Assembly (NCBI GenBank): GCA_016179965.1
Contig: JACPCF010000021.1
Location: 1-36,144 of the forward strand
Direction: 5' to 3'
Origin: Candidatus Rokuibacteriota bacterium
GTDB taxonomy: Bacteria > Methylomirabilota > Methylomirabilia > Rokubacteriales > CSP1-6
Length of the DNA stretch: 36,144 bases
Part shown: one piece after another, positions 1,371 to 33,445 of the stretch
How positions within the stretch are numbered: position 1 is the first letter of the stretch
Layout of the letters: the number at the start of each line of letters is the position of its first letter
Made by a program: the position numbers and the translations under genes
Notes under the pieces: model-generated
Seen by the model: the letters and a program-made list of their open reading frames with translations, nothing else
The model's database searches: none
Told to the model about the DNA's origin: nothing

Positions 1371-1400
1371 AGCCGCGACCTCCGGTTGCGGCTTTTTTTT
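1371..1400 (+). terminator. Rho-independent terminator
   Basis: AGCCGCGACC and GGTTGCGGCT form a ten-pair stem (one G-U) around a three-base loop, followed directly by eight T residues. It lies 33 bases after the stop of the zinc-finger gene and closes that transcription unit. Confidence 0.93.
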
Positions 1401-1414
1401 CGCCGTGTAAGAAT
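1386..1414 (+). promoter_or_regulatory. Candidate promoter, leaderless type, for the acyltransferase
   Basis: TTGCGG (1386-1391), a 17-base spacer and AAGAAT (1409-1414), followed after six bases by the GTG start at 1421. It overlaps the descending arm of the preceding terminator. No Shine-Dalgarno sequence is present. Confidence 0.45.
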
Positions 1415-1420
1415 CGGGCC

Positions 1421-2050
1421 GTGCGCCTGTTTGGGCCCGAAATCTTTGTTCCGGCCGTCTGGCTCCTGGGGCGCGCTTACTTCGGCGTCCGCTTCGAGGG
1501 GGTCGAGAATATCCCGAAAGCGGGGCCGCTCATCATCGCGCCAAACCACGTGACCTACGCCGATCCGCCGCTGGTCACGCTGCCCATGCCTCGCCAGGTC
1601 TACTTCATGGCCTGGAACCGGCTGTTCGACGTGCCGCTCTTCGGGCGGGTGATCCGCTTTTTCCGCGCCTTCCCACTGGAGACCGAGAGCGCCGACCCGA
1701 CGGCGGTCCGGGGAGCCGCGCGCCTGCTCAAGGCCGGCCAGGCGGTCATGATCTTCCCCGAGGGCAGGCGAACCCCGGATGGTCGCCTCCTGCGGTTCAA
1801 GCCGGGGGCGTTTCGGCTCGCGTGCTCTCTCGGAGCCCCGATCGTGCCCGTGACGATCGTGGGGGGCCACGAAGCCTGGCCGCCGCAGCGCACCTTTCCC
1901 CGACCGGGCCGCATCACGATCGTGTACCATCCGCCGGTCATGCCCGCGGCCGGCATGCCGCCGCGTATCGCAGCGCCCGAACTCGCCCGTCGCGTGCGCG
2001 CCGCCATCGCCTCCCGGCTGCCGCCCCACCAGCAGCCCGACCCATCCTAA
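1421..2050 (+). CDS. PlsC-type 1-acylglycerol-3-phosphate acyltransferase
   Basis: A 209-residue lysophospholipid acyltransferase (LPLAT/PlsC), transferring an acyl chain to lysophosphatidic acid or a similar acceptor at the inner face of the membrane. The catalytic HX4D motif is NHVTYADP near residue 46, and the substrate-binding block FPEGRR lies near residue 112, followed by PIVPVTIVGG. An N-terminal hydrophobic stretch (FVPAVWLLGRAYF) may associate with the membrane. The open frame extends far upstream, but it crosses the zinc-finger gene and a terminator, so the GTG at 1421 just before the conserved region is chosen; length then fits the family. An 8-bp inverted repeat (2040-2060) straddles the stop codon. 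Acceptor specificity cannot be read from sequence. Confidence 0.88.
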   Translation: MRLFGPEIFVPAVWLLGRAYFGVRFEGVENIPKAGPLIIAPNHVTYADPPLVTLPMPRQVYFMAWNRLFDVPLFGRVIRFFRAFPLETESADPTAVRGAARLLKAGQAVMIFPEGRRTPDGRLLRFKPGAFRLACSLGAPIVPVTIVGGHEAWPPQRTFPRPGRITIVYHPPVMPAAGMPPRIAAPELARRVRAAIASRLPPHQQPDPS

Positions 2051-2133
2051 ACGGATGGGTGCCGCGACCCGCCTTCGGCGGGTGCCCGCAAAGGAGCGGC
2101 TCCGCCGTCTTGAGGGCTCGCCTTCGCTCGCGC
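2040..2133 (+). repeat. Modular palindromic GC-rich repeat, copy 1
   Basis: Successive small hairpins: ACCCATCC/GGATGGGT across the acyltransferase stop, then ACCCGCC-TTC-GGCGGGT (2067-2083), then a GGGTGCCCGCAAAGGA segment and GGCTCGCCTTCGCTCGCGC (2115-2133). The last two segments recur nearly identically at 5004-5019 and 5090-5108, so this is a dispersed intergenic repeat family rather than a simple terminator. Confidence 0.75.
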
Positions 2134-2141
2134 TTGCGGCT

Positions 2142-2552
2142 CTAGGGGGCGGCAGGGCGGAACTTGTAGAGGGTGATGTCGGGGGAGGCGTCCTCGAAGA
2201 CGACTTCGACTGGCATCCCGACCTCCGCCTCATCGGGCGGGCAGCCGATCAGGTTGGACATGAGCCGGACTCCCTCGGCCAGATCCACCAGGGCGACGAT
2301 GTAGGGGACATCGGCCGCGAAGGCCTCGCCGGCGGGGCGATAGCAGACTGTGTAGGAGTAGACCGTCCCCTTGCCGGCGGTCACGACCCACTCAAACTCC
2401 CCCGAGAGGCAGTGGGGGCAGACGGCGCGCGGATAGAAGCGGAAGCGCCGGCAGGCTCGGCACCTCTGGAGCCTCAACTGGCGCGCCTTCACGCCCTCCC
2501 AGAACTCCCGGCTCTCGGCGTCCGGTTGGGGCAGGGGCTTGGTCGGAGTCAT
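2142..2552 (-). CDS. Zn-ribbon/OB-fold protein (DUF35) partner of thiolase-like protein
   Basis: A 136-residue DUF35-type protein. The N-terminal rubredoxin-like zinc ribbon has CRAC and CPHC pairs (residues about 37-54), and the C-terminal OB fold follows (GTVYSYTVCYRP, VPYIVALVDL, EVVFEDA). DUF35 proteins form stable complexes with thiolase-superfamily enzymes and are thought to help channel or bind acyl-CoA in beta-oxidation-like or sterol side-chain pathways. The ATG at 2552 shares one base with the TGA stop of the thiolase-like gene just upstream in transcription, the usual coupled arrangement. A longer in-frame extension to 2651 overlaps the thiolase coding sequence and lacks family similarity, so it is not used. 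Confidence 0.92.
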   Translation of the reverse strand: MTPTKPLPQPDAESREFWEGVKARQLRLQRCRACRRFRFYPRAVCPHCLSGEFEWVVTAGKGTVYSYTVCYRPAGEAFAADVPYIVALVDLAEGVRLMSNLIGCPPDEAEVGMPVEVVFEDASPDITLYKFRPAAP

Positions 2553-3709
2553 CAGATTCTCCCGAGGATGGCGGTTCCCGACGACGACAGGACCCCGCCG
2601 GTGCCGTGGCAGAGGGCTACCTCCGCGTCCTCGACCTGTCGCGCCCCGCATTCTCCCCTCAGCTGGCGTGCCCCCTCGATCAGCGTGAAGATGCCAAAGA
2701 CCCCCGGGTGGCAGTAGGAGAGGCCGCCCCCCTGGGTGTTCAGCGGAAACTCGCCGCCCGGAGCGGTGCGCTGGCCAGAGACGAAGGCGCCGCCCTCCCC
2801 CTTCTTGCAGAAGCCCAGGTCCTCGAGCGTCAGGAGGACGGTGATCGTGAAGGAATCGTAGATCTCCGCCACGTCCACGTCGCTGGGGGCGAGCCCCGCC
2901 ATCGCAAATGCACGAGGGCCCGTGAGAGCGGCGCCGGTCACGGTGAGGTCGGGCATCTGGCTGATGATCTGGTGGGTGTGGGTCTCCGCGGTGCCCAGGA
3001 CCACAACGGGCGCCTTTTTAAGGTCGCGGGCGCGCTCGAGCGGGGTCAGCACCACGGCCCCGCCCCCGTCGGTCACGAGGCAGCAGTCCAGGAGGTGCAG
3101 GGGGGAGGCGATGAGCCGGGAGTTGAGCACGTCCTCGATGGTGATCGGCTCGCGCATCATCGCCACGGGGTTGAGCTGGGCCCACTGGCGCGTCGCCACG
3201 GCGATCTCGGCCAGTTGCTCCGAGGTGGTGCCATAGACGCCCATGTGACGCGTGGCGGCCAGCGCGTAGGCGCCGAGCGGCAGGGGGAGGCCGAAGGGGC
3301 GCTCGTACTGGGAGTTCGGGAGGCGCGGATCTTCGGGATGCCCGCTGAAGCGCCGGGCGGCGTCGGAGGCCTGAGTGCTCCCGTAGGCGACGAGGGCGAC
3401 CGAGCAGAGCCCGGCGCTGATGGCCGCGGCGGCGTGCTCGACGAAGGCCACGGGCGTCGAGCCGCCCATCATGCTCGAGTCGGAGTAGCGGGGCTGGATC
3501 TGGAGGTACTCGCCGAACTGGACGGCTCCCATCCGGCCGAAGCCGAAGGCGAAAAGCCCGTCCACGTCTGACTTCTTGAGGCCGGCGTCTTCGAGCGCCC
3601 CTCGGGAGGCCTCGGCGGCCAGCTGGATCGCCGTCTTGTGGGGCACTTTCCCAAGATCGGACTCCGCGACTCCCACGAAAGCGATCTGCTGGACTGGGTG
3701 TGGACTCAC
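2552..3709 (-). CDS. Thiolase-superfamily acyl-CoA acetyltransferase / lipid-transfer protein
   Basis: A 385-residue protein of the SCP2-type thiolase group. It opens with QQIAFVGVAESDLGK, typical of these proteins, and contains GGSTPVAFVEHAAAAI where classical thiolases carry the nucleophilic Cys region; here the position reads Ser-Met-Met-Gly-Gly-Ser without Cys. The C-terminal part keeps AEIYDSF, NTQGGGLSYCHPG and LCHGTGG, including the His-Pro-Gly and Cys-His-Gly active-site segments. Like many DUF35-paired homologues it may be a hydrolase, aldolase or non-classical thiolase. The GTG start at 3709 overlaps the stop of the threonine ammonia-lyase gene by a GTGA and begins immediately before the conserved region. 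Threonine ammonia-lyase, this protein and DUF35 form one operon; a physiological link between 2-oxobutyrate and acyl-CoA turnover is only an inference. Confidence 0.9.
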   Translation of the reverse strand: MSPHPVQQIAFVGVAESDLGKVPHKTAIQLAAEASRGALEDAGLKKSDVDGLFAFGFGRMGAVQFGEYLQIQPRYSDSSMMGGSTPVAFVEHAAAAISAGLCSVALVAYGSTQASDAARRFSGHPEDPRLPNSQYERPFGLPLPLGAYALAATRHMGVYGTTSEQLAEIAVATRQWAQLNPVAMMREPITIEDVLNSRLIASPLHLLDCCLVTDGGGAVVLTPLERARDLKKAPVVVLGTAETHTHQIISQMPDLTVTGAALTGPRAFAMAGLAPSDVDVAEIYDSFTITVLLTLEDLGFCKKGEGGAFVSGQRTAPGGEFPLNTQGGGLSYCHPGVFGIFTLIEGARQLRGECGARQVEDAEVALCHGTGGVLSSSGTAILGRI

Positions 3710-4923
3710 AGGCGCGCGTCTACCTCCCGGACGCGGTAGCCGGCCTCGCCCAGGCGCTGCTTGACCGCCTCGATCTGCTCCCGCCCCGAGGTCTCCAGGG
3801 TCACCTCCACCTCGGTCTCCCCGATCCGCGCGTGAGAGAAGGCCCGGTCGTGACTGATGTGGAGGACGTTGGCCCGGGATTCGGCGATGAGCGCCGTGAG
3901 CCGCGCCAGCGCGCCGGGGCGGTCCTGGAGCAGGACGGAGAGGCGCACCAGGCGGCCGTCCTTCACCAGGCCACGCTCGATGATCCGCGCGATGACGTTG
4001 ACGTCGATGTTCCCTCCCGACAGCACCAGGACCACGGTCTTTCCCTCGAGGGCGACCCTCTTGTTCACCACCGCGGCGAGCGTGGTCGCCCCGGCTCCCT
4101 CCACGACGGTCTTCTCGATCTCCAGGAGCAGCAGGATCGCGTTGGCGATCTCTTCCTCGTTGACCGTGACCACCGCGTCCACGTGCTTCTTCGCCAGCTC
4201 GAAGGTGAGCTCGCCGACCTCGCGGACGGCGATGCCGTCGGCGATGGTGGCGGCGGCCGGCAGCGTCAGGCGCTTGCCGCCCCAGAGCGACGCCTGCATC
4301 GACGCGATCTCTTCGGCCTGGACGCCGATCACCCTCACCTTGGGGTTCTTCGCCTTGATCGCGAGAGCCACACCCGCGATCAGCCCGCCGCCTCCCACCG
4401 GGACGATGACAGCGTCCAGATCGGGGCACTGCTCCAGCAGCTCGAGCCCCAGCGTGCCCTGGCCGGCGATCACCTGCGGGTCGTCGAAAGGATGGATGAA
4501 GGTCAGCCCGCGCTCGGCTTCGATCTTCCGGGCGTGGCCGTAGGCCTCATCGTAGTTGGCCCCGGCCAGCACGACCTCCGCCTCATGGTAGCGCGCGGAG
4601 GTCACCTTGATGAGCGGAGCCCACTCGGGCATCACGATCACCGAGCGGATCCCCAGGCGCTGGCAGTGGAAGGCGATGGCCAGTCCGTGGTTGCCGGCGC
4701 TCGCTGCCACGACCCCTCGGGCCCGCTCCGCCTCGGAGAGGGTGAGCAGCTTGTTGGCGGCCCCGCGCTCTTTGAAGGAGCCCGTCATCTGGAGGTTTTC
4801 GAGCTTGACGAACGAGCGGCTGCCGGTCAGGCGGGAGAGCGTCTCGGAGTAGGCGCACGGCGTGGCGTAGATCGCCTTACTGAGGCGCTGGCGGGCGGCC
4901 TCGACGTCGGAGAGGGACAGCAC
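3706..4923 (-). CDS. ilvA: Threonine ammonia-lyase (PLP-dependent, ACT domain)
   Basis: A 405-residue threonine dehydratase converting L-threonine to 2-oxobutyrate and ammonia. The PLP lysine lies in GSFKERGA near residue 56, the Gly-rich phosphate-binding loop is VGGGGLIAG near residue 180, and SAGNHGLA is also conserved. The last 75 residues form an ACT domain (LSVLLQDRPGALARLTALI) as in the roughly 400-residue short forms, so amino-acid regulation is likely. The frame is open to an upstream ATG at 4977, but the GTG at 4923 fits the family length and sits seven bases after the -10 box of a strong promoter. It leads the thiolase/DUF35 operon with a GTGA overlap. The biosynthetic versus catabolic role is not settled by sequence, so the symbol is by family. 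Confidence 0.92.
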   Translation of the reverse strand: MLSLSDVEAARQRLSKAIYATPCAYSETLSRLTGSRSFVKLENLQMTGSFKERGAANKLLTLSEAERARGVVAASAGNHGLAIAFHCQRLGIRSVIVMPEWAPLIKVTSARYHEAEVVLAGANYDEAYGHARKIEAERGLTFIHPFDDPQVIAGQGTLGLELLEQCPDLDAVIVPVGGGGLIAGVALAIKAKNPKVRVIGVQAEEIASMQASLWGGKRLTLPAAATIADGIAVREVGELTFELAKKHVDAVVTVNEEEIANAILLLLEIEKTVVEGAGATTLAAVVNKRVALEGKTVVLVLSGGNIDVNVIARIIERGLVKDGRLVRLSVLLQDRPGALARLTALIAESRANVLHISHDRAFSHARIGETEVEVTLETSGREQIEAVKQRLGEAGYRVREVDARL

Positions 4924-4930
4924 GCCCCGC

Positions 4931-4959
4931 ACCTTATCCAATGACCTCGGGGGTGTCAA
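4931..4959 (-). promoter_or_regulatory. Sigma-70-type promoter, leaderless, for ilvA operon
   Basis: On the minus strand TTGACA (4959-4954), a 17-base spacer and TAAGGT (4936-4931) are followed after seven bases by GTG at 4923. Transcription should begin at or within a base or two of the start codon. The AAGG inside the -10 box is the only Shine-Dalgarno-like sequence. Confidence 0.75.
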
Positions 4960-5122: not shown

Positions 5123-5992
5123 CTAGAAGGGGATGACGGGGCCGGGCTGGGCCGGCGAGATCCAGCCCACGGGCATGAGCGGGGTGGAGTGGGCCCAGCC
5201 TACGCGCCCGCGCCAGTCGAGCAGGACGAGCCCGCCCTGGCCCCCGCCCTCCTGGACGAGGACGTCCACCGCCCCTTGAGCCGCGTGCTCCGGGTCGGCC
5301 AGCGCCTTCAGGATGTCTAGGGCCCGCCGCCCCAGCACCACGCGGATGATCGCCTCGCCGTCGCCCGTGCAGGACACGCCCCCGAGCGTGCTCTCCGCGT
5401 ACGTGCCGCAGCCGATCAGGGCGGAGTCCCCGACGCGGCCGGGGAGTTTGCCGGCGGTGCCTCCGGTGGAGGTGGCAGCGGCGATCGTGCCGCGGAGATC
5501 GAGGGCGACGGCGCCAACCGTCCCCCGGGCCGCGCGCTCCAGGTAGCGGGTCCGCTGGCGCTCGGTGATCAGCTCGGCGGGGTCGCATTCAGGGATGCCA
5601 GCCTGGCGGGCGAAGGCGAGGGCGCCGTCCCCGACCAGAAGCACGTGGCGGCCGTCCTCCAGAATTTTCCGCGCGAGAGTGACGGGGTGGGCGATTCGCG
5701 TCACCGCTCCCACCGCCCCGCAGCGGAGTCGGTCGCCTTCCATGATCGAGGCGTCCAGCTCGATCCCCCCGGCGGCGTTGAGCACGGCGCCCCGGCCCGC
5801 GTTGAAGCGCGGATGAGCCTCCAGACTCCTCACCGCGGACTCCACCGCATCCAGCGCCGTCCCGCCCGTAGTCAGCGCGGCCCAGCCGGCGAGCACCGCT
5901 TCCCGGATGCCGTTCCTGAGCTCGTCTCGCCCCTCAGCGGGATCGGCCCCGGCCCCGCCGTGAACGATGAGCGTCGGGACCCGTGCCGTCAT
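5123..5992 (-). CDS. Isoaspartyl peptidase / plant-type L-asparaginase (Ntn hydrolase)
   Basis: A 289-residue member of the asparaginase 2 family, which hydrolyses isoaspartyl dipeptides and L-asparagine and is activated by self-cleavage. The nucleophile is Thr158 in GTVGAVALD, preceded by the linker where autocleavage occurs. Conserved substrate-binding parts include HGGAG at residues 11-15, RFNAGRGAVLN (62-72), and GGTAGKLPGRVGDS (177-190) followed by LIGCGTYA. There is no signal peptide, so it is cytoplasmic. It is a single-gene unit with its own promoter and divergent from the LivG-type ATPase gene. IaaA/EcAIII enzymes have this architecture, but asparaginase versus isoaspartyl preference is not readable. 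The start ATG lies seven bases after the -10 box. Confidence 0.93.
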   Translation of the reverse strand: MTARVPTLIVHGGAGADPAEGRDELRNGIREAVLAGWAALTTGGTALDAVESAVRSLEAHPRFNAGRGAVLNAAGGIELDASIMEGDRLRCGAVGAVTRIAHPVTLARKILEDGRHVLLVGDGALAFARQAGIPECDPAELITERQRTRYLERAARGTVGAVALDLRGTIAAATSTGGTAGKLPGRVGDSALIGCGTYAESTLGGVSCTGDGEAIIRVVLGRRALDILKALADPEHAAQGAVDVLVQEGGGQGGLVLLDWRGRVGWAHSTPLMPVGWISPAQPGPVIPF

Positions 5993-5999: not shown

Positions 6000-6029
6000 A
6001 GGTTAGGCGGGGGCCGGGGGGACTGTCAA
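6000..6029 (-). promoter_or_regulatory. Sigma-70-type promoter, leaderless, for asparaginase
   Basis: On the minus strand TTGACA (6029-6024), an 18-base spacer and TAACCT (6005-6000), then seven bases to ATG at 5992. No Shine-Dalgarno sequence is present. Confidence 0.7.
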
Positions 6030-6104: not shown

Positions 6105-6110
6105 TATCAT
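6105..6110 (+). promoter_or_regulatory. Candidate -10 box for LivG-type ATPase
   Basis: TATCAT followed after nine bases by ATG at 6120, with no Shine-Dalgarno sequence and no clear -35 hexamer. It resembles the other near-leaderless starts in the window. Confidence 0.4.
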
Positions 6111-8050: not shown

Positions 8051-8078
8051 TTGCCACTCCCTGGCGCTGCCGTATACT
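8051..8078 (+). promoter_or_regulatory. Sigma-70-type promoter, leaderless, for MFS gene
   Basis: TTGCCA (8051-8056), a 16-base spacer and TATACT (8073-8078) are followed after six bases by GTG at 8085. No Shine-Dalgarno sequence is present. Confidence 0.65.
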
Positions 8079-8084: not shown

Positions 8085-9299
8085 GTGCCTTCTGCCTACC
8101 TCGTCTGGGGTCTCCTGATCTACGCATGGGTCGGCAACTACATGATCCGCATGGCGCTCTCCTCCCTCCTGCCGCCCATCATGACCGAACTGGGGCTCTC
8201 CTACACGCGGGCCGGCTTCCTCGCCACGGCCTTCTTCTACGCCTATATGGCGATGCAGCTGCCGGCGGGATTCCTCGGCGACCGGCTGGGCCGCCGGCGC
8301 GTCGTCCTCGGGGGAATTCTCCTGGGCGTCCTGGCCTCGCTCTTCACGGGACTCGCGGGCTCGTTCGCGGCGCTCTTCGCGGCGCGGCTCCTCACCGGGC
8401 TCGGCCAGGGATGCGTCTTCTCGAACGACCGCGTCATCATCACTGCCTACACGCCCAAGGAGAAGATGGCGATGGGGCAGGGGGTCTCCTTCTCCGGCCC
8501 CGGGGTCGGCACGACCCTCGGCCTCGTGCTGGCCGGCGCCCTCGGAGAGGTGATGCCGTGGCGCGGCGTGTTCTTCCTCTTTGCCCTGGCGCCGCTCCTG
8601 GCCGCGTTTCTCCTCTGGCGGCTCGTCCCTGAGCCCCCGAGCCCGTCCGTGGCGGACGCCGCCGGGTGGACCTTCCGCCGTGTGGCCGCCACCCCCGCTC
8701 TCTGGATCCTGGGCCTCGCGGGGATCATGCCGGTGTACCTCCAGTTCGTCCTCGCCACCTGGGGCCCGCTCTTTTTCTCCGAGGTCGGCGTCGGCGACCT
8801 CGGGCGCTCGGCGCTCTACGCGAGCTTCCAGGGCGTGGCGGCGCCGTTCGGCCTCTTCGCCATGGGCTGGCTCGCCGACCGCGCCCAGGAGCGCGGCGTC
8901 TCGCGCAAGGTCGTCATCGCGCTCACGATTCTCCTGGCCGGCGCGTCGATCGCGGGCATGGGGAGCGCCCTCCAGACGAACGGATCGGCGGCCCTCGTCG
9001 CGTTCTTCATGATGGCCACGAGCTTCTTCGTCTGGGGGACGTGGGGGCCTGCCTACGCCCTCATGGCCGAGCGCTTCCCGCCCGGCGTCCTCGGAAGCGC
9101 CTTCGGTCTTCTGAACACGATCTGCTTCATCGGCTCGGTCGTGGGCCCGTTCCTCACCGGCTGGATCAAGGACGTGACGGGCTCCTTCGCCGGGGGGTGC
9201 TACGGGGCGGCGGCGGCGGCGGGGCTGGGAGCGGCGGCGGCCCTGGCATTTCCCCAGGCGCTCCGCACGAAGCGCGCCCCCTCCCCTTCCACGGTATAA
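8085..9299 (+). CDS. Major facilitator superfamily transporter
   Basis: A 404-residue secondary transporter with about twelve predicted transmembrane segments. The conserved loop 2-3 motif is GDRLGRRRVVLGG near residue 67, and a second copy with GWLADRAQERGVSRK lies in the central loop between helices 8 and 9. The protein resembles anion:cation symporter-like MFS proteins (organic acid uptake), but no substrate-defining residue is visible. The GTG at 8085 is chosen because it lies six bases after a TATACT -10 box and directly precedes the first helix (AYLVWGLLIYAWVGNYM); an upstream in-frame ATG at 8043 would overlap the promoter. It is a single-gene unit, probably inserted next to the truncated LivM. 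Confidence 0.88.
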   Translation: MPSAYLVWGLLIYAWVGNYMIRMALSSLLPPIMTELGLSYTRAGFLATAFFYAYMAMQLPAGFLGDRLGRRRVVLGGILLGVLASLFTGLAGSFAALFAARLLTGLGQGCVFSNDRVIITAYTPKEKMAMGQGVSFSGPGVGTTLGLVLAGALGEVMPWRGVFFLFALAPLLAAFLLWRLVPEPPSPSVADAAGWTFRRVAATPALWILGLAGIMPVYLQFVLATWGPLFFSEVGVGDLGRSALYASFQGVAAPFGLFAMGWLADRAQERGVSRKVVIALTILLAGASIAGMGSALQTNGSAALVAFFMMATSFFVWGTWGPAYALMAERFPPGVLGSAFGLLNTICFIGSVVGPFLTGWIKDVTGSFAGGCYGAAAAAGLGAAAALAFPQALRTKRAPSPSTV

Positions 9300-9300
9300 T
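9295..9300 (+). promoter_or_regulatory. -10 box (consensus TATAAT) for M16 peptidase
   Basis: A perfect TATAAT six bases before GTG at 9307, lying across the MFS stop codon. No recognisable -35 hexamer or Shine-Dalgarno sequence is present. Confidence 0.6.
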
Positions 9301-9306: not shown

Positions 9307-10644
9307 GTGAAAATTCTCTTGCGATTCGCTCTCTGTTTCGTCCTTTTTGTCGCCCTGACGGCAGCGGCCGCTCCGGCGGCCGACGGGGTCCTGGAGGCCA
9401 CGCTCGACAACGGTCTTCGGGTATTGCTCCTCGAGGATCATCGCAGCCCGGTCGTGTCGTTGCTGGTCTGGTACCGGGTCGGCTCGCGCAACGACCGCGC
9501 CGGCGCCACCGGCCTCGCCCACCTCCTGGAGCACATGATGTTCAAGGGGACGCCGACCTATGGTCCGCGGATGTTTTCCGGTCTCATCGAGCAGAACGGC
9601 GGCCAGGACAACGCCTTCACAAGCCAGGATCACACCTCCTACTTCGTGAACATCGCTGCGGATAAGCTCGACCTCGTTGTCGCGCTTGAGGCGGACCGGA
9701 TGAGGAACCTGCTGCTCGACGCCAAAGAATTCGAATCCGAGCGCCAGGTCGTCATGGAGGAACGGCGCAGCCGGACCGAGGACGACCCGGAGGGGTTCCT
9801 CGGCGAGGAACTGTCGGCGATCGCCTTCGTGGCGCACCCCTACCGCTCGCCGATCGTGGGCTGGATGGAGGACATTCGCGGGCTCACCGTCGAGGACGCG
9901 CGGGCGTTCTACCGCACCTACTACGTCCCCAACAACGCCCTGGTGGTGGCCGCGGGCGATTTCAAGGCCTCCGTGCTCCTCGAGAGCATCCGCCGGGCCT
10001 TCGGCCCCATCCCGCGGGCCGCCGATCCGTCACCCGTGAAGGTGGTGGAACCCAAGCAGAATGGAGAACGCAGAGTCACGGTCAGGAAAGAAGCCCAGCT
10101 CCCGCTGGTCTTCATCGGTTACCCGGTGCCGAACTTCCGCGCGCCTGACGCGCCGGCGCTCGAGCTGCTCTCCACGATCCTGTCGGAGGGGCGGAGCTCC
10201 CGGCTCTACCGCCGGCTGGTGTACGAGCAGCAGATCGCGCTGAACGCCGGGGGCGATTACTCCTACTTCTCCGCCGACCCGAACCTCTTCTGGTTCTTCG
10301 CCACCGCCCTGCCCGGCCAGGCCCCCGAGGCGCTGGAGCGGGCCCTTCTCCAGGAGGTGGAGCGGCTCAAGACCGAGCCGGTGTCGGCGACGGAGCTGGA
10401 GCGCGCGAAGAACCAGATCGAGGCGTCCTTCGTGTTCCAGCAGGACTCGGTGTACAGCCGCGCCTCGCTGCTGGCCCGCTTCGAGCTGATCGGCGGCTGG
10501 CGGCTCCGGGACCAGTTCGTCCCGGCGATTCGCGCGGTGACCGCCGTGGATCTCCAGCGGGCGGCGCGTGCCTACTTCCCCGACGAGCGGCGCAACGTGG
10601 GGGTCCTGCTTCCGATCCCTCCAGGAGAATCGAAGAGGCCCTGA
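9307..10644 (+). CDS. M16 family zinc peptidase, catalytic subunit
   Basis: A 445-residue pitrilysin-family (M16B) metalloprotease with an N-terminal signal peptide (MKILLRFALCFVLFVALTAAAA), so periplasmic or secreted. The inverted zinc motif HxxEH is HLLEH at residues 72-76 (AHLLEHMMFKG), and the Glu-Glu pair at 151-152 (VVMEERR) supplies the third zinc ligand. The C-terminal M16 domain (RLYRRLVYEQQIALNAGG) has diverged from the substrate-binding R/Y pattern, which the second M16 gene at 13957 retains. Such active/inactive pairs usually form heterodimers. It is followed five bases later by the HlyD-like gene. The role (signal-peptide or peptide degradation, or maturation of a secreted peptide) is unknown. 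Confidence 0.92.
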   Translation: MKILLRFALCFVLFVALTAAAAPAADGVLEATLDNGLRVLLLEDHRSPVVSLLVWYRVGSRNDRAGATGLAHLLEHMMFKGTPTYGPRMFSGLIEQNGGQDNAFTSQDHTSYFVNIAADKLDLVVALEADRMRNLLLDAKEFESERQVVMEERRSRTEDDPEGFLGEELSAIAFVAHPYRSPIVGWMEDIRGLTVEDARAFYRTYYVPNNALVVAAGDFKASVLLESIRRAFGPIPRAADPSPVKVVEPKQNGERRVTVRKEAQLPLVFIGYPVPNFRAPDAPALELLSTILSEGRSSRLYRRLVYEQQIALNAGGDYSYFSADPNLFWFFATALPGQAPEALERALLQEVERLKTEPVSATELERAKNQIEASFVFQQDSVYSRASLLARFELIGGWRLRDQFVPAIRAVTAVDLQRAARAYFPDERRNVGVLLPIPPGESKRP

Positions 10645-15297: not shown

Positions 15298-15876
15298 ATG
15301 CGGCGCGGCTCGCTCGTTTGCGTCCTCTTCCTGGGCTGCCTCCTCGGCGGCGCTCCCCTGTCCGCGGCCTCCTTCTCCCTCACCCCGCGCGAGACCCAGG
15401 AGGCGATCCGCTTCGGCCAGCGGAGCGTGGTCAACGAGGATTTCGGCCGCGAGTGGAGGACGACCAACGCGTCAGGGGAAACCCTGACCGTCGTCACCCC
15501 GTTCTTTCGCCTGGCTCAAGCGGCGCGCAACGCGGCGTTCAAGCAGGAGATCTTGAAGCGGCGGGACATCGACTCCCTCCTCAAGGAGCATCAGGGCCGG
15601 CTGGGGTTCTGGGCCCACCTCCGAGGCAGTCGCGAGGATTTCGCCCGTTGGTACCAGCCCGTGCTGCTGGTGCAGGGCAAGGGAGAGATCAAGCCGTCGT
15701 TCGTCCAGAACGAGCGGACGGCCCTCCGCCAAGCGGACGGGCGCTTTCTCTCGCGCTCGCTCTACGCCTTTCCGGCGAACGACCTGGACGGCAAGAGCCG
15801 GGTGACCCTCCTGGTCCGGGACAGCGACGACAAGGAAGTGGCCCGATTCGTGGTGGACCTTTCGGCAATGCGCTAA
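15298..15876 (+). CDS. Secreted protein of unknown function
   Basis: A 192-residue protein with a clear signal peptide (RRGSLVCVLFLGCLLGGAPLSAA) and no other membrane segment. I do not recognise the family. The mature part starts with FSLTPRETQEAIRFGQRSV, has conserved-looking aromatic blocks (LGFWAHLRGSREDFARWY) and ends in a beta-rich region (SRVTLLVRDSDDKEVARFVVDL). A Cys is present only in the signal region, and the LGC-LLGG context does not make a good lipobox. It is followed after ten bases by the thioredoxin-like gene, with a GGAGA ribosome binding site between them, suggesting cotranscription. Confidence 0.75.
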   Translation: MRRGSLVCVLFLGCLLGGAPLSAASFSLTPRETQEAIRFGQRSVVNEDFGREWRTTNASGETLTVVTPFFRLAQAARNAAFKQEILKRRDIDSLLKEHQGRLGFWAHLRGSREDFARWYQPVLLVQGKGEIKPSFVQNERTALRQADGRFLSRSLYAFPANDLDGKSRVTLLVRDSDDKEVARFVVDLSAMR

Positions 15877-20857: not shown

Positions 20858-20886
20858 TTGAACATCCCGGGGCCCTGTGGCAGAAT
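20858..20886 (+). promoter_or_regulatory. Sigma-70-type promoter, leaderless, for citrate synthase
   Basis: TTGAAC (20858-20863), a 17-base spacer and CAGAAT (20881-20886), followed after seven bases by ATG at 20894. No convincing Shine-Dalgarno sequence is present. Confidence 0.65.
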
Positions 20887-20893
20887 TCAGGCG

Positions 20894-22018
20894 ATGACCA
20901 ACCTCGTCAAAGCCGGCCTGGAAGACGTCGTCATTTCCACTTCCGAGATCTGTTTCATCGATGGCCAGCAAGGGCGGTTGCTCTATCGGGGGTATGACAT
21001 CGACGACCTCGCCGGCCAGTCCACCTTCGAGGAGGTCATGTACCTCCTGTTGTACGGCGCCCTGCCGAGCAGGAAAGAGCTCGACGCCCATCTCAAGGCG
21101 CTGGCCGGGGCAAGGCGGCTCCCCCCGCGCATCATCGCGATCCTGAAAGACCTCCCGCGGAAGACCGTCCCCATGGAGGTCTTGCGCACGGGGGTCTCGG
21201 CGCTCTCCGCCTTCGACCCGGACGAGCGGGATAACTCCCGCGAGGCCACGCTCCGCAAAGCGATCCGCCTGGCGGCCCAGATGCCGACGCTCGTTGCCGC
21301 CTGGGAGCGGATCCGCCGGGGCAAGGAGCCTGTGGCCCCGAACCCGCGCCTGCGCCATGCGGCCAACTTCCTCTCCATGCTGTCCGGCAGGAAGCCCACC
21401 GATCTGGCGGCGCGGACCTTCGACGTGGCGCTGATCCTCCATGCCGACCACGAGTACAACGCCTCGACCTTCGCCGCCCGCGTGACGGCGGCGACGCTCT
21501 CCGACCTGCACTCGGCGGTGACCTCGGCCATCGGCGCCCTCAAAGGGCCGCTGCACGGCGGCGCCAACGAGCAGGTCATGCTGATGGTGGATCAGATCAA
21601 GGAGCCCGCCCGCGCCGAGGCCTGGATCCGGAAGGCCCTCGCCGACAAGGCGCGCATCATGGGATTCGGCCACCGGGTGTACCGCGTGGAGGATCCGCGG
21701 GCCAAGCACCTCCGGCGCCTCGCCACCGAGCTGGGGCAACAGGCGGGAAACACGTCCTACGTGGAGATCCTGGACACGGTGGGGCGCATGGTGACGGCGG
21801 AGAAGCACATCTACCCCAACGTGGACCTGTACTCCGGCGCCGCCTACGCGACCATGGGGATCCCCGCCGATCAGTTCACGCCGATCTTCGCCTTGAGCCG
21901 GATCGCGGGATGGGCCGCTCACGTCCTCGAGCAGCACGCCCACAACCGGCTCATCCGGCCGCGGGCGGAGTACACCGGCCCGACGCACGCCACGTATATC
22001 CCCATCGACCGCCGGTAA
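20894..22018 (+). CDS. gltA: Citrate synthase (short, dimeric type)
   Basis: A 374-residue citrate/2-methylcitrate synthase condensing oxaloacetate with acetyl-CoA (or propionyl-CoA). Catalytic residues are His221 in PLHGGANE, His260 in GFGHRVYR and Asp311 in YPNVDLYSG; HADHEYNAS (183-191) is also conserved. The length and lack of the N-terminal extension of the E. coli NADH-sensitive hexamer place it with the short dimeric type of Gram-positives and archaea. Methylcitrate activity cannot be excluded, so the symbol is by family. It has its own near-leaderless promoter and is followed ten bases later by the glycosyltransferase gene. Confidence 0.93.
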   Translation: MTNLVKAGLEDVVISTSEICFIDGQQGRLLYRGYDIDDLAGQSTFEEVMYLLLYGALPSRKELDAHLKALAGARRLPPRIIAILKDLPRKTVPMEVLRTGVSALSAFDPDERDNSREATLRKAIRLAAQMPTLVAAWERIRRGKEPVAPNPRLRHAANFLSMLSGRKPTDLAARTFDVALILHADHEYNASTFAARVTAATLSDLHSAVTSAIGALKGPLHGGANEQVMLMVDQIKEPARAEAWIRKALADKARIMGFGHRVYRVEDPRAKHLRRLATELGQQAGNTSYVEILDTVGRMVTAEKHIYPNVDLYSGAAYATMGIPADQFTPIFALSRIAGWAAHVLEQHAHNRLIRPRAEYTGPTHATYIPIDRR

Positions 22019-26748: not shown

Positions 26749-27266
26749 TACTTCTTCGGTGGCTCGACGCCCAGCACCTTCACGTCGAAGAAGAGGGTCT
26801 TGCCCGCCAGGGGATGGTTCAGGTCAATCACCACGGTCTTTTCCTTGACCTCTTTGACGCGGACGATCCTTCTGCCGCCGCCCTGGCTCTGAGCCACCAG
26901 CTCGGTCCCGACGGTCAGCGCGTCCGGCGGGAGCATGTCCTTCGGGACTTCGGTGAGGGCTCGCGGATCCACCTCGCCGTACGCGTCCGCAGGCTTCACC
27001 GTCACCTTCTTCTCGTCGCCCGCCCGCATCCCGTTCAGAGCCTTCTCCAAGCCGGGGATGATCTGCTGCTGCCCCTGCGTGTACATGAGGGGCTCCTGGC
27101 CCCTGTTCGAGTCCAGCACCTTGCCGCCATCGTCTTTCAGCGTGTATTCGAGCTGGACCTTCGAGCCATTCTCGATGGCGGGACTCCTGCCCTGCTCCTG
27201 TGGTTGAGCCTCCGCGACGCCGAGCGCCAGCCCGAGCGTGAGAGCGATCACCCCCGCGGTTTTCAT
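26748..27266 (-). CDS. Periplasmic FKBP-type peptidyl-prolyl isomerase (SlyD-like)
   Basis: A 172-residue peptidyl-prolyl cis-trans isomerase/chaperone. A signal peptide (KTAGVIALTLGLALGVAEA) is followed by the FKBP half (KVQLEYTLKDDGGKVLDS, QQQIIPGLEKALNGM, AYGEVDP), the inserted-flap domain (TEVPKDMLPPDALTVGTEL) and the SlyD hallmark DLNHPLAGKTLFFDV. The His-rich metal-binding tail of E. coli SlyD is missing. Export is unusual for SlyD types, so it may fold periplasmic or membrane partners such as the next gene product. GGAGG precedes the ATG at 27266 by five bases; the frame extends upstream without family similarity. Confidence 0.92.
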   Translation of the reverse strand: MKTAGVIALTLGLALGVAEAQPQEQGRSPAIENGSKVQLEYTLKDDGGKVLDSNRGQEPLMYTQGQQQIIPGLEKALNGMRAGDEKKVTVKPADAYGEVDPRALTEVPKDMLPPDALTVGTELVAQSQGGGRRIVRVKEVKEKTVVIDLNHPLAGKTLFFDVKVLGVEPPKK

Positions 27267-27426
27267 CGCGCCTCCCATTTGCCGGGCGAAATGGCCCCGG
27301 CACATGCGTTGGAGTCTACACCGGCGCGGCGAGGTGGCGCAATCTGCCCGTATCAGAATCGAGCCGTTGGATGTTCCGGGGGCAAGAGAGTGACGAGGCG
27401 ATCGGAACAAATAGCCCGGCGGGCTC

Positions 27427-30700: not shown

Positions 30701-31105
30701 CATCACCTGGTTGACCGTCCCCTCGTAGCGATGGACGGCCTCCATCATGCGCTCCAGCACGGGATCCAGGAGCTTTCGCGCCTCCTCGGCATCACGGTCG
30801 GCTAGGAGCTCCATGGACCCCTTCAGGTCGGCAAAGAGGACGGTGACCTGCTTGCGCTCCCCTTCGAGCGCGCTCTTGGAGGACAGGATCTTCTCGGCGA
30901 GATGCGGAGGCGTGTAAGCCTGGGGGAAGGCAAATCGGGCCCCCGGAGCCGTGGACGTCAGGGGCTGGCCGCAGCGCTTGCAGAATTTGTGGATGGGGGC
31001 GTTGGCGGTGCCGCAGGAAGGGCACGCGATCTCGAGCCGGGCGCCGCACTCAGGGCAGAACGTCGCGTCGGGCGGCGACTCGCTCTGGCATCGCGGGCAC
31101 TGCAT
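27740..31105 (-). CDS. Zinc-ribbon / class III adenylate cyclase / AAA ATPase / TPR protein
   Basis: A 1121-residue soluble multidomain protein. Residues 3-45 form two zinc ribbons (CPRC, FCPEC, ACPSC, FCKRC). A class III nucleotide cyclase domain follows (TVLFADLKGSMELL, then NQVMGDGIMALFGAP, with the metal Asp and GDG turn; about residues 83-260). An AAA_16/STAND ATPase module comes next (PFVGRDGELEQL, Walker A GEPGVGKS, Walker B VLLVVEDLHWID), and then about 500 residues of TPR-like repeats (RALAIANDLNDVNLELV, ARLAAQALDLCRKHKERG). Such proteins act as ATP-dependent sensors or scaffolds. The cyclase may be active, but its substrate-specifying residues were not checked. The gene starts seven bases after the nitrile hydratase alpha stop, so it is in that operon. 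Confidence 0.92.
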   Translation of the reverse strand: MQCPRCQSESPPDATFCPECGARLEIACPSCGTANAPIHKFCKRCGQPLTSTAPGARFAFPQAYTPPHLAEKILSSKSALEGERKQVTVLFADLKGSMELLADRDAEEARKLLDPVLERMMEAVHRYEGTVNQVMGDGIMALFGAPVAHEDHAVRACYAALRMQESVNRYGDEIQRAHGVPVQIRVGLNSGEVVVRSIGSDLRMDYTAVGQTTHLAARMEQMARPGSVLVTAVTLRLAEGYIHVKPLGPVAVKGLEAPIDVYEVAGAGSARSRLQVGAARGLSPFVGRDGELEQLQRALEQTEKGHGQVVALVGEPGVGKSRLFWEFAHSYRTDGWLLLQGAAVSYGKATAYSPVLDLLKGYFKIEDRDDSRTIQEKVTGKVMTLDRSLEDVVLAVLALLEALPQEHPFRAITPAQRRQHTLDALKRLLLRESQGQPVLLVVEDLHWIDSETQALLDSLTESLPAARVLLLVNYRPEYQHRWGTKGYYTQLRIDPLPPESCEALLHALVGNGADVQPLKRLLIERTEGNPFFLEESVRTLVETRVLVGERGAYRMAMAPSGIQVPATVQAVLAARIDRLPPEEKGLLQTAAVIGKDVPIAILQAVAGLPEDALRPGLAHLQAAEFLYEARLFPEVEYTFKHALTHDVAYGSLLQERRRGLHARIVEVIEALYADALAERVEQLSYHAHRGEVWDKALTYLRQAGAKAVARSADREAVAWFEQALDTLTHLPDSRDRLQQAIDLRFSLRASLFRLGEFGRILGHLREAETLARTIDDQPRLGQVYSHLINYYLATAEHDRALESGQRALAIANDLNDVNLELVTNFHLGQVYASLGEYRRAVASIRTFVQSLRSDPRREGFDQSARLVLSSTWLAWWLAELGEFAEGTTIGEETVRVAEAVDQPFERLVAYLGMGLLHLRKGDFHKAIPALERSLPLCRIGDLVLWSPAIASPLGYAYALSGRLGEAIPLLERAVEETMLLRRVGHALRMAHLSEAFLLAERPDDAARLAAQALDLCRKHKERGHQAYVLRLLGEIASHHDSPQIEEAEDAYRQARALAEELGMRPLLAHCHLGLGGLHARLGRAEAARAALSTAIRLFGSMEMAFWLDRAEAMLAKVGGAP

Positions 31106-31112
31106 GAGCGCC

Positions 31113-31745
31113 CTAGCGCAGCGCCGGGGTGCGCGCCTGGGCCACGCCGATCATGCTGTCCCGCGTGACCAGTTCCGCCAGTTCCGCTTCGCTCGTACCC
31201 TCCGTACCCGCCGGCCGGGCGGGGATCACGAGGTAGCGCATATCGGCGGTGCTGTCGAGGACCCGCACCTCCACGTCCGGCGGGGGCTCCGTCCCGAACT
31301 CCTTCAGCACCCCGCGCGGGTCCACCACCACGCGCGAGCGGTAGTTCAGGCTCTTGTACCAGTCGGGCGGATAGCCGAGGAGGCCGCGCGGGTAGCAGGA
31401 GCAGAGGGTGCACACGACGACGTGGTGCACCTTCTGGGTGTTCTCGACGGCCACGAGCGCCGCCTCCTGCGTGAACTCGATCCCGAGCTCGGCGATCGCC
31501 GCCTTGGCGTCCGCGAGCAGGCGCGCCTTGAACGCGGGGTCCACCCAGGCCCGGGCGATGACCTTGGCCCCCAGGGTAGGGGAGCGCGAGTCCATCTCCT
31601 CCACCCTTCGCCGCACCTGGTCGGCCGTGATGAGGCCTTTCTCGATCAGGAGCGTCTGGACGGCGTCCACCCGACGCTCGAACTCGGTCATCGGGTGATC
31701 ACGGGCGACGGGGGCGTGGGGATTATCGGGGTGATCGTCGTGCAT
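31113..31745 (-). CDS. nthA: Nitrile hydratase alpha subunit (cobalt-type signature)
   Basis: A 210-residue alpha subunit, hydrating nitriles to amides (or, in relatives, thiocyanate to COS and ammonia). The metal-binding motif is VCTLCSCYPR with Cys112, Cys115 and Cys117; Thr at the second position of CTLCSC is the cobalt-type signature, whereas iron enzymes have Ser. Conserved VVVDPRGVLKEFG and VRVLDSTADMRYLVIP complete the family. GGAGGGA precedes the ATG by about four bases. It is the third gene after two split beta-subunit genes. No p14K/NhlE-type cobalt activator is visible nearby, unless the N-terminal beta-like protein serves this role. Confidence 0.95.
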   Translation of the reverse strand: MHDDHPDNPHAPVARDHPMTEFERRVDAVQTLLIEKGLITADQVRRRVEEMDSRSPTLGAKVIARAWVDPAFKARLLADAKAAIAELGIEFTQEAALVAVENTQKVHHVVVCTLCSCYPRGLLGYPPDWYKSLNYRSRVVVDPRGVLKEFGTEPPPDVEVRVLDSTADMRYLVIPARPAGTEGTSEAELAELVTRDSMIGVAQARTPALR

Positions 31746-31762
31746 GGCTCCCTCCTGCCGTG

Positions 31763-32047
31763 TCAGGCCGGTTCCAGCCAGTGCTCGTAGATGTCGATCA
31801 ACAGTTGGTCCCGAGGCGGCCCCGGGTATTTCCCCCAGACGTGCGGCTGGGCGAAGCGGACCCGATAGAGCGGCTGCTTGGGGAGGCCGTCGCCGCCGTG
31901 GGCGAGCGACTCAGGGTTGCGGTAGGTGCCGTGGAGGCGCTCGACTGTGCCGATCTTGCCCTGGATATACGTGGGTGTCCGGAAGTGCCGCGGGGGAGAC
32001 CCGAGCCGGACCTTGACCCGGTCCCCGGCCTTGAACCTGGCGCTCAT
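31763..32047 (-). CDS. Nitrile hydratase beta subunit, C-terminal (SH3-like) half as separate gene
   Basis: A 94-residue protein equal to the SH3-like C-terminal domain of the nitrile hydratase beta subunit: FKAGDRVKVRLGSPPRHFRT (residues 5-24), then GKIGTVERLHGTYRNPE and LYRVRFAQPHVWG. It ends with IDIYEHWLEPA, as in fused beta chains. It starts with ATGA, overlapping the stop of the upstream N-terminal half by four bases. The split recalls thiocyanate hydrolase (three subunits) and toyocamycin nitrile hydratase, where beta is also in two pieces. Confidence 0.93.
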   Translation of the reverse strand: MSARFKAGDRVKVRLGSPPRHFRTPTYIQGKIGTVERLHGTYRNPESLAHGGDGLPKQPLYRVRFAQPHVWGKYPGPPRDQLLIDIYEHWLEPA

Positions 32048-32349
32048 CGGCGTGCTGCCAGCTCCTTGACCTTCCGCTCGATCTCCTCGCGCGTCAGGAC
32101 GCCTTTTTCCACCATGATCGTCTCGACGGCGTGGAGCCACCGCTCGTAGTACTTGGACTTCTCGTACGCCGCCGGCTCCATGCTCTCGATCGCCCGGCGC
32201 AGCTCGTCCACCCTCATCACGCGCTTCTGGGGGCTCATCAGGAGCATGGCGATCGCGTCGGTCCGCTTCTCCCACCAGGACAGGTCGTGTTCGGACTTGT
32301 CCACCGGGCCCGCGCCGGGCCGGCCTCCTCGATCGTGCACCCGCGACAT
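32044..32349 (-). CDS. Nitrile hydratase beta subunit, N-terminal half as separate gene
   Basis: A 101-residue helical protein matching the N-terminal domain of nitrile hydratase beta. It begins with RVHDRGGRPGAGPV (the HDxGGxxGxGPV block), then WWEKRTDAIAMLLMS, and has YYERWLHAVETIMVEKGVLT, also typical of beta chains. Nitrile hydratase activators resemble this domain too, but the HDxGG block favours a structural subunit. AAAGGAG precedes the ATG by six bases. First gene of the operon, downstream of a promoter and a palindromic operator. Confidence 0.9.
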   Translation of the reverse strand: MSRVHDRGGRPGAGPVDKSEHDLSWWEKRTDAIAMLLMSPQKRVMRVDELRRAIESMEPAAYEKSKYYERWLHAVETIMVEKGVLTREEIERKVKELAARR

Positions 32350-32361
32350 CGGCGTCTCCTT

Positions 32362-32384
32362 TGTTCACCTGCTTCGGGTGAACA
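32362..32384 (-). promoter_or_regulatory. Palindromic operator at the nitrile hydratase transcription start
   Basis: TGTTCACC and GGTGAACA form a perfect 8-bp inverted repeat around seven bases. It begins one base after the -10 box of the leftward promoter, so it spans the expected transcription start and lies just before the AAAGGAG ribosome binding site. It could be a repressor operator, or a 5' UTR hairpin next to the ribosome binding site. It is 51 bases from the -10 box of the divergent radical SAM gene, and its regulator is unknown. Confidence 0.7.
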
Positions 32385-32385
32385 C

Positions 32386-32413
32386 ATACTACCCGTCCAC
32401 GTCGGCATGTCAA
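32386..32413 (-). promoter_or_regulatory. Sigma-70-type promoter of nitrile hydratase operon
   Basis: On the minus strand TTGACA (32413-32408), a 16-base spacer and TAGTAT (32391-32386). The -35 is perfect. The palindrome immediately follows the -10 box. Confidence 0.72.
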
Positions 32414-32434
32414 CCTCGCCTGGCCGCCCGCTGG

Positions 32435-32440
32435 TATAAT
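32435..32440 (+). promoter_or_regulatory. -10 box (TATAAT) for radical SAM gene
   Basis: A perfect TATAAT six bases before GTG at 32447. No Shine-Dalgarno sequence and no recognisable -35 element. Confidence 0.55.
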
Positions 32441-32446
32441 CTGGCC

Positions 32447-33445
32447 GTGCTCGCCGAGACGGCTTTCAGCGTCAGGGCGCGGGAGTTCGAGCCGGCCTAC
32501 TTCAGGCTCGGCGTCGCCGAGATCGAGCGCCGGGCGGCGGAGGCCGTGGCCGCCCTGGCCTCCTGCCAGGTCTGCCCCCGCAACTGCCGGGTGGACCGCC
32601 TCCACGACAAGACGGCCGTCTGCAGGTCGGGGCGCTACGCGCTGGTGAGCTCCCACTTCCCCCATTTCGGCGAGGAGGACTGCCTCCGCGGCTGGAAGGG
32701 CTCGGGCACGATCTTCTTCTCCTGGTGTAATTTGCGCTGCATTTTTTGTCAGAATTGGGACGTCAGCCAGAAGGGAGAGGGGGCGGTGGTGACCCCGGAG
32801 CGGCTGGCGGACATGATGCTGGAGCTCCAGGCCATCGGCTGCCACAACATCAACTTCGTCACGCCCGAGCACGTGGTGCCCCAGATCCTGGAGGCCCTGC
32901 CGCTGGCGATCCGGGGCGGCCTCCGCCTCCCCATCGTGTACAACACGAGCGCCTACGACAGCCTGGAGAGCATCCGGTGGATGGACGGCATCGTGGACAT
33001 CTACATGCCGGACTTCAAGGTGTGGGACGGCGTGGTGGCCAAGCGGTACTTGAAAGCGCCAGATTATCCGGCAGCCGCACAGAAGGCCATCAGCGAGATG
33101 CACGAGCAGGTGGGGCCGCTGGTCATGGACGAGCACGGGCTCGCCAAGCGCGGGCTCCTGGTCCGCCACCTGGTGATGCCGGGCATGCTGGAAGAGACGC
33201 GGCAGATCATGACCTGGCTCGCCCGCGAGCTCTCGCCCGACACCTACGTCAACGTGATGGCGCAGTATTATCCGGCCGGGGTCGTCTCCGACGAGAAGTA
33301 CCCGGAGATCAACCGGCGGCTCTTCACCGGGGAGTACGCCGAGGCCGTGACGATCGCCCGTGAGGCCGGGCTCTGGCGCCTGGACGAGCGCCGTCCCCGC
33401 CTGCCCCTTCTTCGGCTGACGGTCACTGGCCCTAGAACACGGTGA
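32447..33445 (+). CDS. Radical SAM protein (PflX/COG1313-like)
   Basis: A 332-residue radical SAM protein of the COG1313 group. The cluster motif is CNLRCIFCQNWDVS (CxxxCxxC), preceded by the family's GWKGSGTIFFSWC. An N-terminal Cys-rich part, CQVCPRNCRVDR, also typical of the group, may bind a second cluster. The C-terminus has GILLVRHLVMPG-like and VNVMAQYYPAG blocks. The group resembles pyruvate-formate-lyase activases but has no confirmed substrate. The GTG at 32447 lies six bases after a perfect TATAAT; a longer in-frame extension to 32153 crosses the nitrile hydratase genes and is rejected. It is divergent from the nitrile hydratase operon. Confidence 0.9.
   Translation: MLAETAFSVRAREFEPAYFRLGVAEIERRAAEAVAALASCQVCPRNCRVDRLHDKTAVCRSGRYALVSSHFPHFGEEDCLRGWKGSGTIFFSWCNLRCIFCQNWDVSQKGEGAVVTPERLADMMLELQAIGCHNINFVTPEHVVPQILEALPLAIRGGLRLPIVYNTSAYDSLESIRWMDGIVDIYMPDFKVWDGVVAKRYLKAPDYPAAAQKAISEMHEQVGPLVMDEHGLAKRGLLVRHLVMPGMLEETRQIMTWLARELSPDTYVNVMAQYYPAGVVSDEKYPEINRRLFTGEYAEAVTIAREAGLWRLDERRPRLPLLRLTVTGPRTR

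What the first reader, a model, noticed from the sequence alone, without database searches (positions are those of the whole stretch)
1386..32449. Widespread leaderless (or near-leaderless) promoter architecture
At nine gene starts a -10-like hexamer lies only 6-9 bases before the start codon with no Shine-Dalgarno sequence: acyltransferase (1421), ilvA (4923), asparaginase (5992), LivG-type ATPase (6120), MFS (8085), M16 (9307), secreted unknown (15298), citrate synthase (20894) and radical SAM (32447). Six are GTG or ATG starts exactly 6-7 bases after the box, and five also have a TTGNNN -35-like hexamer at 16-18 bases. Genes inside operons instead use stop/start overlaps or real ribosome binding sites. 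A sigma-70 transcript would begin at the start codon, so leaderless translation seems to be a regular mode for first genes here. Leaderless mRNAs are known in actinobacteria and Deinococcus. I am not aware of them being described for this lineage.
Basis: partly seen in the sequence, partly recalled or inferred. Interest (0 to 1): 0.72.

Follow-up and report, generated by a model that had tools for sequence, protein, structure and literature searches.

The report
Leaderless genes in a Rokubacteria genome
In this uncultured soil/groundwater bacterium many genes have their promoter placed so close to the coding sequence that the mRNA should begin exactly at the start codon, a mode known from other bacteria that, as far as I could find, had not been described for this lineage.

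Summary
A motif-blind gene caller on 768 kb of the same genome (Rokubacteria, Methylomirabilota) finds TANNNT 6-9 nt before 41 of 275 first-gene starts against 6.5 expected (P about 1e-19). Two relatives show the same, a Deinococcus control is positive, an E. coli control negative (6 against 6.4). Boxed genes lack Shine-Dalgarno sites (4/47 against 111/308), and their TTG -35 sits at exactly 17 bp. All 33 aligned M16 peptidase orthologues keep a box 6-10 nt before an in-frame start, mostly TATAAT at 6-7 nt. I read these as sigma-70 promoters making leaderless, or at most about 3-nt-leader, mRNAs. RNA ends are unmapped, so transcription start and translation remain inferred. The mechanism is known: surveys predict leaderless transcription in about a fifth of bacterial species. 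So this is a new lineage for a known kind. The strict motif accounts for roughly one first gene in eight, an underestimate. The freshest by-product: divergent pairs whose 18-40 nt intergenic DNA is two overlapping or back-to-back -10 boxes.

The parts
1386..1391 (+). -35-like TTGCGG of the acyltransferase gene (lies inside the preceding terminator-like hairpin)
   Evidence: direct reading
1409..1414 (+). -10-like AAGAAT (extended -10, TGT before it), 6 nt before GTG 1421
   Evidence: direct reading
1421..2050 (+). acyltransferase gene (PF01553), proposed leaderless
   Evidence: start also chosen by motif-blind caller; Pfam
4931..4936 (-). -10 TAAGGT, 7 nt before GTG 4923; TTGACA -35 at 4954-4959 (17 bp)
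   Evidence: -35, -10 and spacing kept in G036, G037, G049, similar in G043, G046
3706..4923 (-). ilvA-type threonine dehydratase (PALP + ACT), proposed leaderless
6000..6005 (-). weak -10 TAACCT, 7 nt before ATG 5992; TTGACA -35 at 6024-6029 (18 bp)
   Evidence: not conserved at the same codon in orthologues
5123..5992 (-). isoaspartyl peptidase/asparaginase (PF01112), proposed leaderless
6105..6110 (+). -10 TATCAT, 9 nt before ATG 6120
   Evidence: TATCAT-9-ATG also in G037 locus L334
6120..6845 (+). LivG-type ABC ATPase, proposed leaderless
8073..8078 (+). -10 TATACT, 6 nt before GTG 8085; TTGCCA -35 at 8051-8056 (16 bp)
   Evidence: TATACT-6-GTG also in G037 locus L333
8085..9299 (+). MFS transporter, proposed leaderless
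9295..9300 (+). -10 TATAAT, 6 nt before GTG 9307; contains the stop codon of the MFS gene
   Evidence: box at 6-10 nt before an in-frame RTG in 33/33 orthologues
9307..10644 (+). M16 peptidase, proposed leaderless; signal peptide begins at this codon
15283..15288 (+). -10 TAGAAT, 9 nt before ATG 15298
   Evidence: TAGAAT/TACAAT at 8-10 nt in 13 of 29 aligned orthologues
15298..15876 (+). secreted protein without Pfam family, proposed leaderless
20881..20886 (+). -10 CAGAAT, 7 nt before ATG 20894; TTGAAC -35 at 20858-20863 (17 bp)
   Evidence: kept in both congeners; other genera have a long SD-bearing leader instead
20894..22018 (+). citrate synthase, proposed leaderless in this genus only
32435..32440 (+). 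-10 TATAAT, 6 nt before GTG 32447
   Evidence: CATACT/CATAAT-6-ATG in L062/L063, TATTAT-7-ATG in G043
32447..33445 (+). radical SAM protein, proposed leaderless

Best explanation
These are primary sigma-factor promoters (-35 TTGACA-like in part, about 17 bp, often an extended -10, TATAAT) placed so that the transcription start, 7-10 nt downstream of the -10 hexamer, falls on the A or G of the ATG/GTG start codon. The mRNA therefore has no leader, or at most about 3 nt, and no Shine-Dalgarno site. The ribosome must start on a 5'-terminal start codon, as on leaderless mRNAs of actinobacteria and Deinococcota. Shown here: the box, its position, the -35 geometry, absence of SD, enrichment at first genes, and conservation of box and spacing across orthologues. 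Inferred: the exact RNA 5' end and the mode of initiation (70S/IF2 type, by analogy from general knowledge). The same genome also uses SD-led initiation.
For: Genome-wide enrichment 41 versus 6.5 in this genome, 14 versus 2.4 in congener G037, 24 versus 2.2 in G044; D. deserti plasmid control 8 versus 2.1; E. coli control 6 versus 6.4. EM finds TATAAT at gap 6-9 in this genome's first genes and GAGGAG in its internal genes. SD in 4/47 boxed versus 111/308 unboxed first genes, P 8e-5. TTG at spacer 17 in 17 of 110 boxed genes of three genomes, 18 in 6, 16 in 3, any other spacer at most 3; extended -10 TGn in 34 of 110; pyrimidine at -1 in 57/77 versus 613/1099, P 0.002. TATAAT-N6-RTG 328 versus TATAAT-N15-RTG 111 in 45 Rokubacteriales genomes, 44 of 45 genomes in that direction. 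Orthologues: M16 33/33, unknown secreted 13/29, ilvA 6 genomes, citrate synthase 3 congeners.
Against: No transcript ends are mapped. Asparaginase has a weak box that is not kept at the same codon, and the acyltransferase box has no TA..T. At gaps of 9 nt a leader of 1-3 nt is as likely as none. At least one promoter of the same look in the window (TAGACT at 27313-27318, before the FKBP gene) probably serves a leadered mRNA, because an SD-preceded ATG follows at 27266, so a box alone does not prove leaderless translation.
Confidence: 0.9

Rival explanations
1. The boxes are real promoters but the start codons are misassigned: the mRNA begins at the supposed start and translation begins at a downstream SD-led start, so the mRNAs have ordinary leaders.
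For: The FKBP gene in the window fits this (TAGACT 27313-27318, SD and ATGAAAACC at 27266). Misannotation of this kind is discussed for Deinococcus (PMC12340547).
Against: Only 2 of 57 boxed genes have an in-frame SD-led start within 75 nt, against 36 of 674 others. In M16 and the secreted protein the signal peptide begins at the proposed codon, and box-to-start spacing is held while sequence around it changes.
Confidence: 0.06
2. The A+T-rich hexamers are not promoters but a non-SD ribosome-binding or open-structure signal.
For: Non-SD, AT-rich upstream signals exist in other phyla (GeneMarkS-2 classes quoted in PMC9581028).
Against: A -35 TTG at exactly 17 bp, the extended -10, rarity inside operons and exact TATAAT consensus are promoter features.
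Confidence: 0.02
3. Chance: a reader looking for boxes upstream of 40 genes picked the ones that fit.
For: Nine sites were chosen by eye; two of them are weak.
Against: Motif-blind genome-wide test P about 1e-19, replicated in two other genomes and by orthologue footprints.
Confidence: 0.01

Closest known systems
Leaderless genes with a -10 motif next to the ORF in Deinococcota (TANNNT; Zhong 2025 PMC12340547; Zheng 2011 PMC3160421)
   Same: TANNNT/TATAAT a few nt before the start codon, no SD, optional -35 at about 17 bp, coexistence with SD-led genes; same kind of signal over background with the same script on a D. deserti plasmid
   Different: Different phylum; transcripts not mapped here; bS21 is present (two genes) whereas the Thermus and Deinobacterium control genomes had no match
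Leaderless mRNAs of actinobacteria (Mycobacterium; PMC3898074, PMC4633059)
   Same: High-GC genome, ATG/GTG starts at the predicted +1, -10 immediately upstream
   Different: No RNA-seq or proteomics for this organism; strict-motif share estimated at about 12% of first genes
Predicted leaderless genes in Acidobacteria and delta-proteobacteria (Zheng 2011 table: 13.3% and 15.8% on average)
   Same: Same kind of computational signal at a similar level
   Different: The text of that survey, as far as I could search it, does not mention Methylomirabilis or NC10

Membership tests
leaderless genes of bacteria | -10-like element at a fixed short distance (about 6-10 nt) before the start codon, enriched over background | tested here: met
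   41 vs 6.5, 14 vs 2.4, 24 vs 2.2; controls behave
leaderless genes of bacteria | no Shine-Dalgarno site before the start codon | tested here: met
   4/47 boxed vs 111/308 unboxed first genes
leaderless genes of bacteria | position held in orthologues | tested here: met
   M16 33/33; secreted protein 13/29; ilvA 6 genomes; citrate synthase 3; asparaginase not at the same codon
leaderless genes of bacteria | RNA 5' end at the first base of the start codon | not testable with these tools
   no transcriptome available; geometry predicts it
leaderless genes of bacteria | translation initiates on the 5'-terminal codon | not testable with these tools
   indirect only: no downstream SD-led start in 55/57; signal peptides begin there
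sigma-70 promoter | -35 TTGACA-like element 16-18 bp upstream of the -10 | tested here: met
   TTG at 17 bp in 17/110, at 16-18 in 26/110, other spacers at most 3 each; many have no clear -35
sigma-70 promoter | extended -10 (TGn) as partial substitute for the -35 | tested here: inconclusive
   34 of 110 boxed genes have TGn, far more than base composition suggests, but no separate background count was made

The most novel reading that the evidence does not exclude
In Rokubacteriales, leaderless promoters are paired back to back into minimal divergent units: a symmetric or overlapping -10 element (as in TAGAATA, TATAATA) fills an intergenic region as short as 18 nt and starts two mRNAs in opposite directions, each beginning on its own start codon, and one such unit is conserved across many genera.
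Probability: 0.5. Interest if true: 0.6.

Novelty: new member of a known kind. Interest (0 to 1): 0.42.

Why it matters
It adds Rokubacteria, an uncultured soil and groundwater lineage, to those with leaderless transcription. It means that gene starts in these MAGs should be called with promoter models as well as SD models. It also supplies natural experiments: M16 is leaderless across the family, while citrate synthase is leaderless in one genus and has a long SD-bearing leader in the others, so the gain and loss of leaders can be dated gene by gene. The very short divergent pairs would be among the most compact bacterial promoter layouts if both transcripts are confirmed.

Tried and rejected
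A third relative (G004) and the Methylomirabilis-like genomes could therefore be examined only by pattern counts. First gene calls for G044 were poor (297 genes in 382 kb) and were redone with the window genome's codon model (359 genes). EM on the smaller control sets went to SD or weak motifs, so it is not used as evidence there. FKBP (27266/27305) was first counted as a tenth leaderless gene, then rejected because of an SD-led start downstream. The idea that lack of bS21 allows leaderless translation was rejected: two bS21 genes are present. A difference in GTG use between boxed and other genes was not significant (P 0.14). A search for the own-genome copy of the conserved divergent pair found nothing in the DNA held. 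Rfam and tRNA scans of the window gave nothing.

Full report
What the window is. The window is contig C137 of a 2.99-Mb MAG, 92% complete, 68% GC over the part sampled. Its radical SAM protein is 85% identical to proteins of 'Candidatus Rokuibacteriota' MAGs and 73% identical to proteins of 'Candidatus Methylomirabilota' MAGs, so the lineage is Rokubacteria within Methylomirabilota.

Checking the nine sites. All nine hexamers and starts are as described (coordinates under parts). Five have TTGNNN at 16-18 bp, two of them a perfect TTGACA (ilvA, asparaginase). The weakest boxes are those of asparaginase (TAACCT) and the acyltransferase (AAGAAT, rescued by an extended -10). A gene caller I wrote, which uses codon usage and start-codon type but no upstream motif, chose the claimed start in seven of nine cases.

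Is it more than chance? On 768 kb of the same genome the caller gave 776 genes. TANNNT ends 6-9 nt before the start in 41 of 275 first genes (divergent, or more than 80 nt from the previous gene), against 6.5 expected from positions 20-99 upstream; in operon-internal genes it is 11 of 342 against 1.1 (Poisson P 1e-19 for first genes). If every in-frame start within 60 nt is allowed, 49 first genes have a box at 6-9 nt against a mean of 14.9 and a maximum of 22 in 21 shifted windows, the same excess of about 12% of first genes. With the same script a congener (G037) gives 14 versus 2.4, another genus of the family (G044) 24 versus 2.2, 150 kb of a Deinococcus deserti plasmid 8 versus 2.1, and 150 kb of E. 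coli K-12 6 versus 6.4. Published shares for Deinococcota are about 30-39% of genes or ORFs (PMC12340547, PMC3160421), so my strict test probably undercounts severalfold.

Are the boxes promoters? Unsupervised EM, seeded with TATAAT, keeps TATAAT with gaps concentrated at 6-9 in this genome's first genes, but drifts to the SD motif GAGGAG in its internal genes and to SD motifs in E. coli. In the 110 boxed genes of the three Rokubacteria genomes a TTG stands 17 bp upstream in 17, 18 bp in 6, 16 bp in 3, and at any other spacer at most 3 times; 34 have an extended -10; the base before the start is a pyrimidine in 74% of genes with gap 8 or less against 56% elsewhere, as expected if the start codon is the transcription start. 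SD-like tetramers are found in 4 of 47 boxed and 111 of 308 unboxed first genes. Only 2 of 57 boxed genes have an SD-led in-frame start shortly downstream.

Orthologue footprints. In all 33 M16 peptidase orthologues with an aligned N-terminus (66-100% identity) a TATAAT, CATAAT or TACACT lies 6-10 nt before an in-frame ATG/GTG, most of them at 6 or 7, while the rest of the upstream DNA is unlike. The secreted protein keeps TAGAAT/TACAAT at 8-10 nt in 13 of 29 (in many others the upstream gene abuts). ilvA keeps TTGACA-17-TAAGGT-7-GTG in five genomes or nearly so and a TAATGT version in a sixth; elsewhere it is mostly operonic. Citrate synthase is leaderless in the three members of this genus only; by eye about 24 of the other 27 aligned orthologues have a TATGATA-type box about 40-50 nt upstream, and nearly all of them a GAGG-type SD: a leadered version of the same gene. 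The radical SAM gene has CATACT/CATAAT-6-ATG in two Methylomirabilota MAGs against TATAAT-6-GTG here, so the start codon changes but the spacing does not.

Phylum. TATAAT-N6-RTG occurs 328 times in 45 Rokubacteriales genomes against 111 for TATAAT-N15-RTG and 22 for the backwards pattern; 44 of 45 genomes go the same way. Family f4 of the same class shows a weaker excess, 145 versus 84, P 3e-5, and f7 42 versus 22; single-genome families are not informative.

Mechanism. The likely course is: the primary sigma factor binds; RNA starts on the first base of the start codon (gap 6-8) or 1-3 nt before it (gap 9-10); the ribosome initiates on a 5'-terminal start codon without SD pairing. The first step is strongly supported by sequence; the last two are inference from other bacteria. 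Two bS21 genes are present, so loss of bS21 is not a requirement.

Counter-example. The FKBP gene has TAGACT 7 nt before an in-frame ATG (27305), but the signal-peptide ATG at 27266 has its own SD (direct reading); that mRNA probably has a leader of about 40 nt. A box alone therefore does not prove leaderless translation.

Known or new. Leaderless genes have been predicted in 207 of 953 bacterial genomes (PMC3160421) and, by GeneMarkS-2, in 21.6% of bacterial species (quoted in PMC9581028), with experiments in Deinococcota (PMC12340547) and mycobacteria (PMC3898074, PMC4633059). No paper in the held library combines leaderless with Rokubacteria, Methylomirabilis or Nitrospirae; subscription papers were not searchable. 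I file it as a new lineage of a known kind.

By-product. Of 17 divergent gene pairs less than 60 nt apart in the three genomes, 6 have a box 6-10 nt before both starts and 9 more before one; shifted controls rarely give a double. The shortest is 18 nt (G044: glycosyltransferase/dioxygenase-like, gaagcgTAGAATaccatc), others are 27 and 28 nt, all with Pfam-supported genes. A pattern for that 18-nt geometry has 57 matches in 60 genomes against 26 for the backwards control, and about 20 of them are one recurring sequence, CATGSCGCGTATAATAYCGCCATG, in many genera. I could not fetch its flanks, so gene identity and both-sided expression remain open. This is the part I would pursue.

Noticed in passing
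L347 5078-5095, L347 9265-9291, L352 12137-12164, L345 11684-11709 (G044); L010 4176-4215 (own genome); L334 about 4624-4650 (G037): Divergent gene pairs 18-40 nt apart whose intergenic DNA consists of overlapping or back-to-back -10 boxes, each about 6-9 nt from its own start codon; a related 24-mer CATGSCGCGTATAATAYCGCCATG recurs in about 20 family genomes.
   Followed up: partly
L088 2697-4199, L149 1483-3426 (-), L166 1429-3318, L152 3-1778 (-); window 32447-33445 is free of it: In several relatives the radical SAM gene carries an in-frame intein-like insert just before the third Cys of the CxxxCxxC Fe-S motif (CNLRCVF/C...GN/CQN), in a mini form and a form with a LAGLIDADG-type endonuclease.
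   Followed up: partly
window 20858-20894 and L197-L226: Citrate synthase has switched architecture: leaderless in this genus, but with a 40-50 nt SD-bearing leader and a conserved TATGATAAAAGC box in most other genera of the family.
   Followed up: partly
window 1366-1420: The terminator-like hairpin after the zinc-finger gene (gccgcgacctccggttgcggc + T8) contains the -35 of the next gene's promoter.
   Followed up: no
window 9295-9300: The TATAAT box of the M16 gene contains the stop codon of the preceding MFS gene; in congeners the upstream DNA is different but the box is kept.
   Followed up: yes
window 27266-27342: Promoter TTGCGC-18-TAGACT before the FKBP gene has an in-frame ATG 7 nt downstream that looks leaderless, but an SD-led signal-peptide start follows 39 nt later.
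   Followed up: yes
G000:C32:5468-5629, G000:C80:5909-6067: Two bS21 genes in this genome and in most relatives; the Thermus and Deinobacterium control genomes have none.
   Followed up: no
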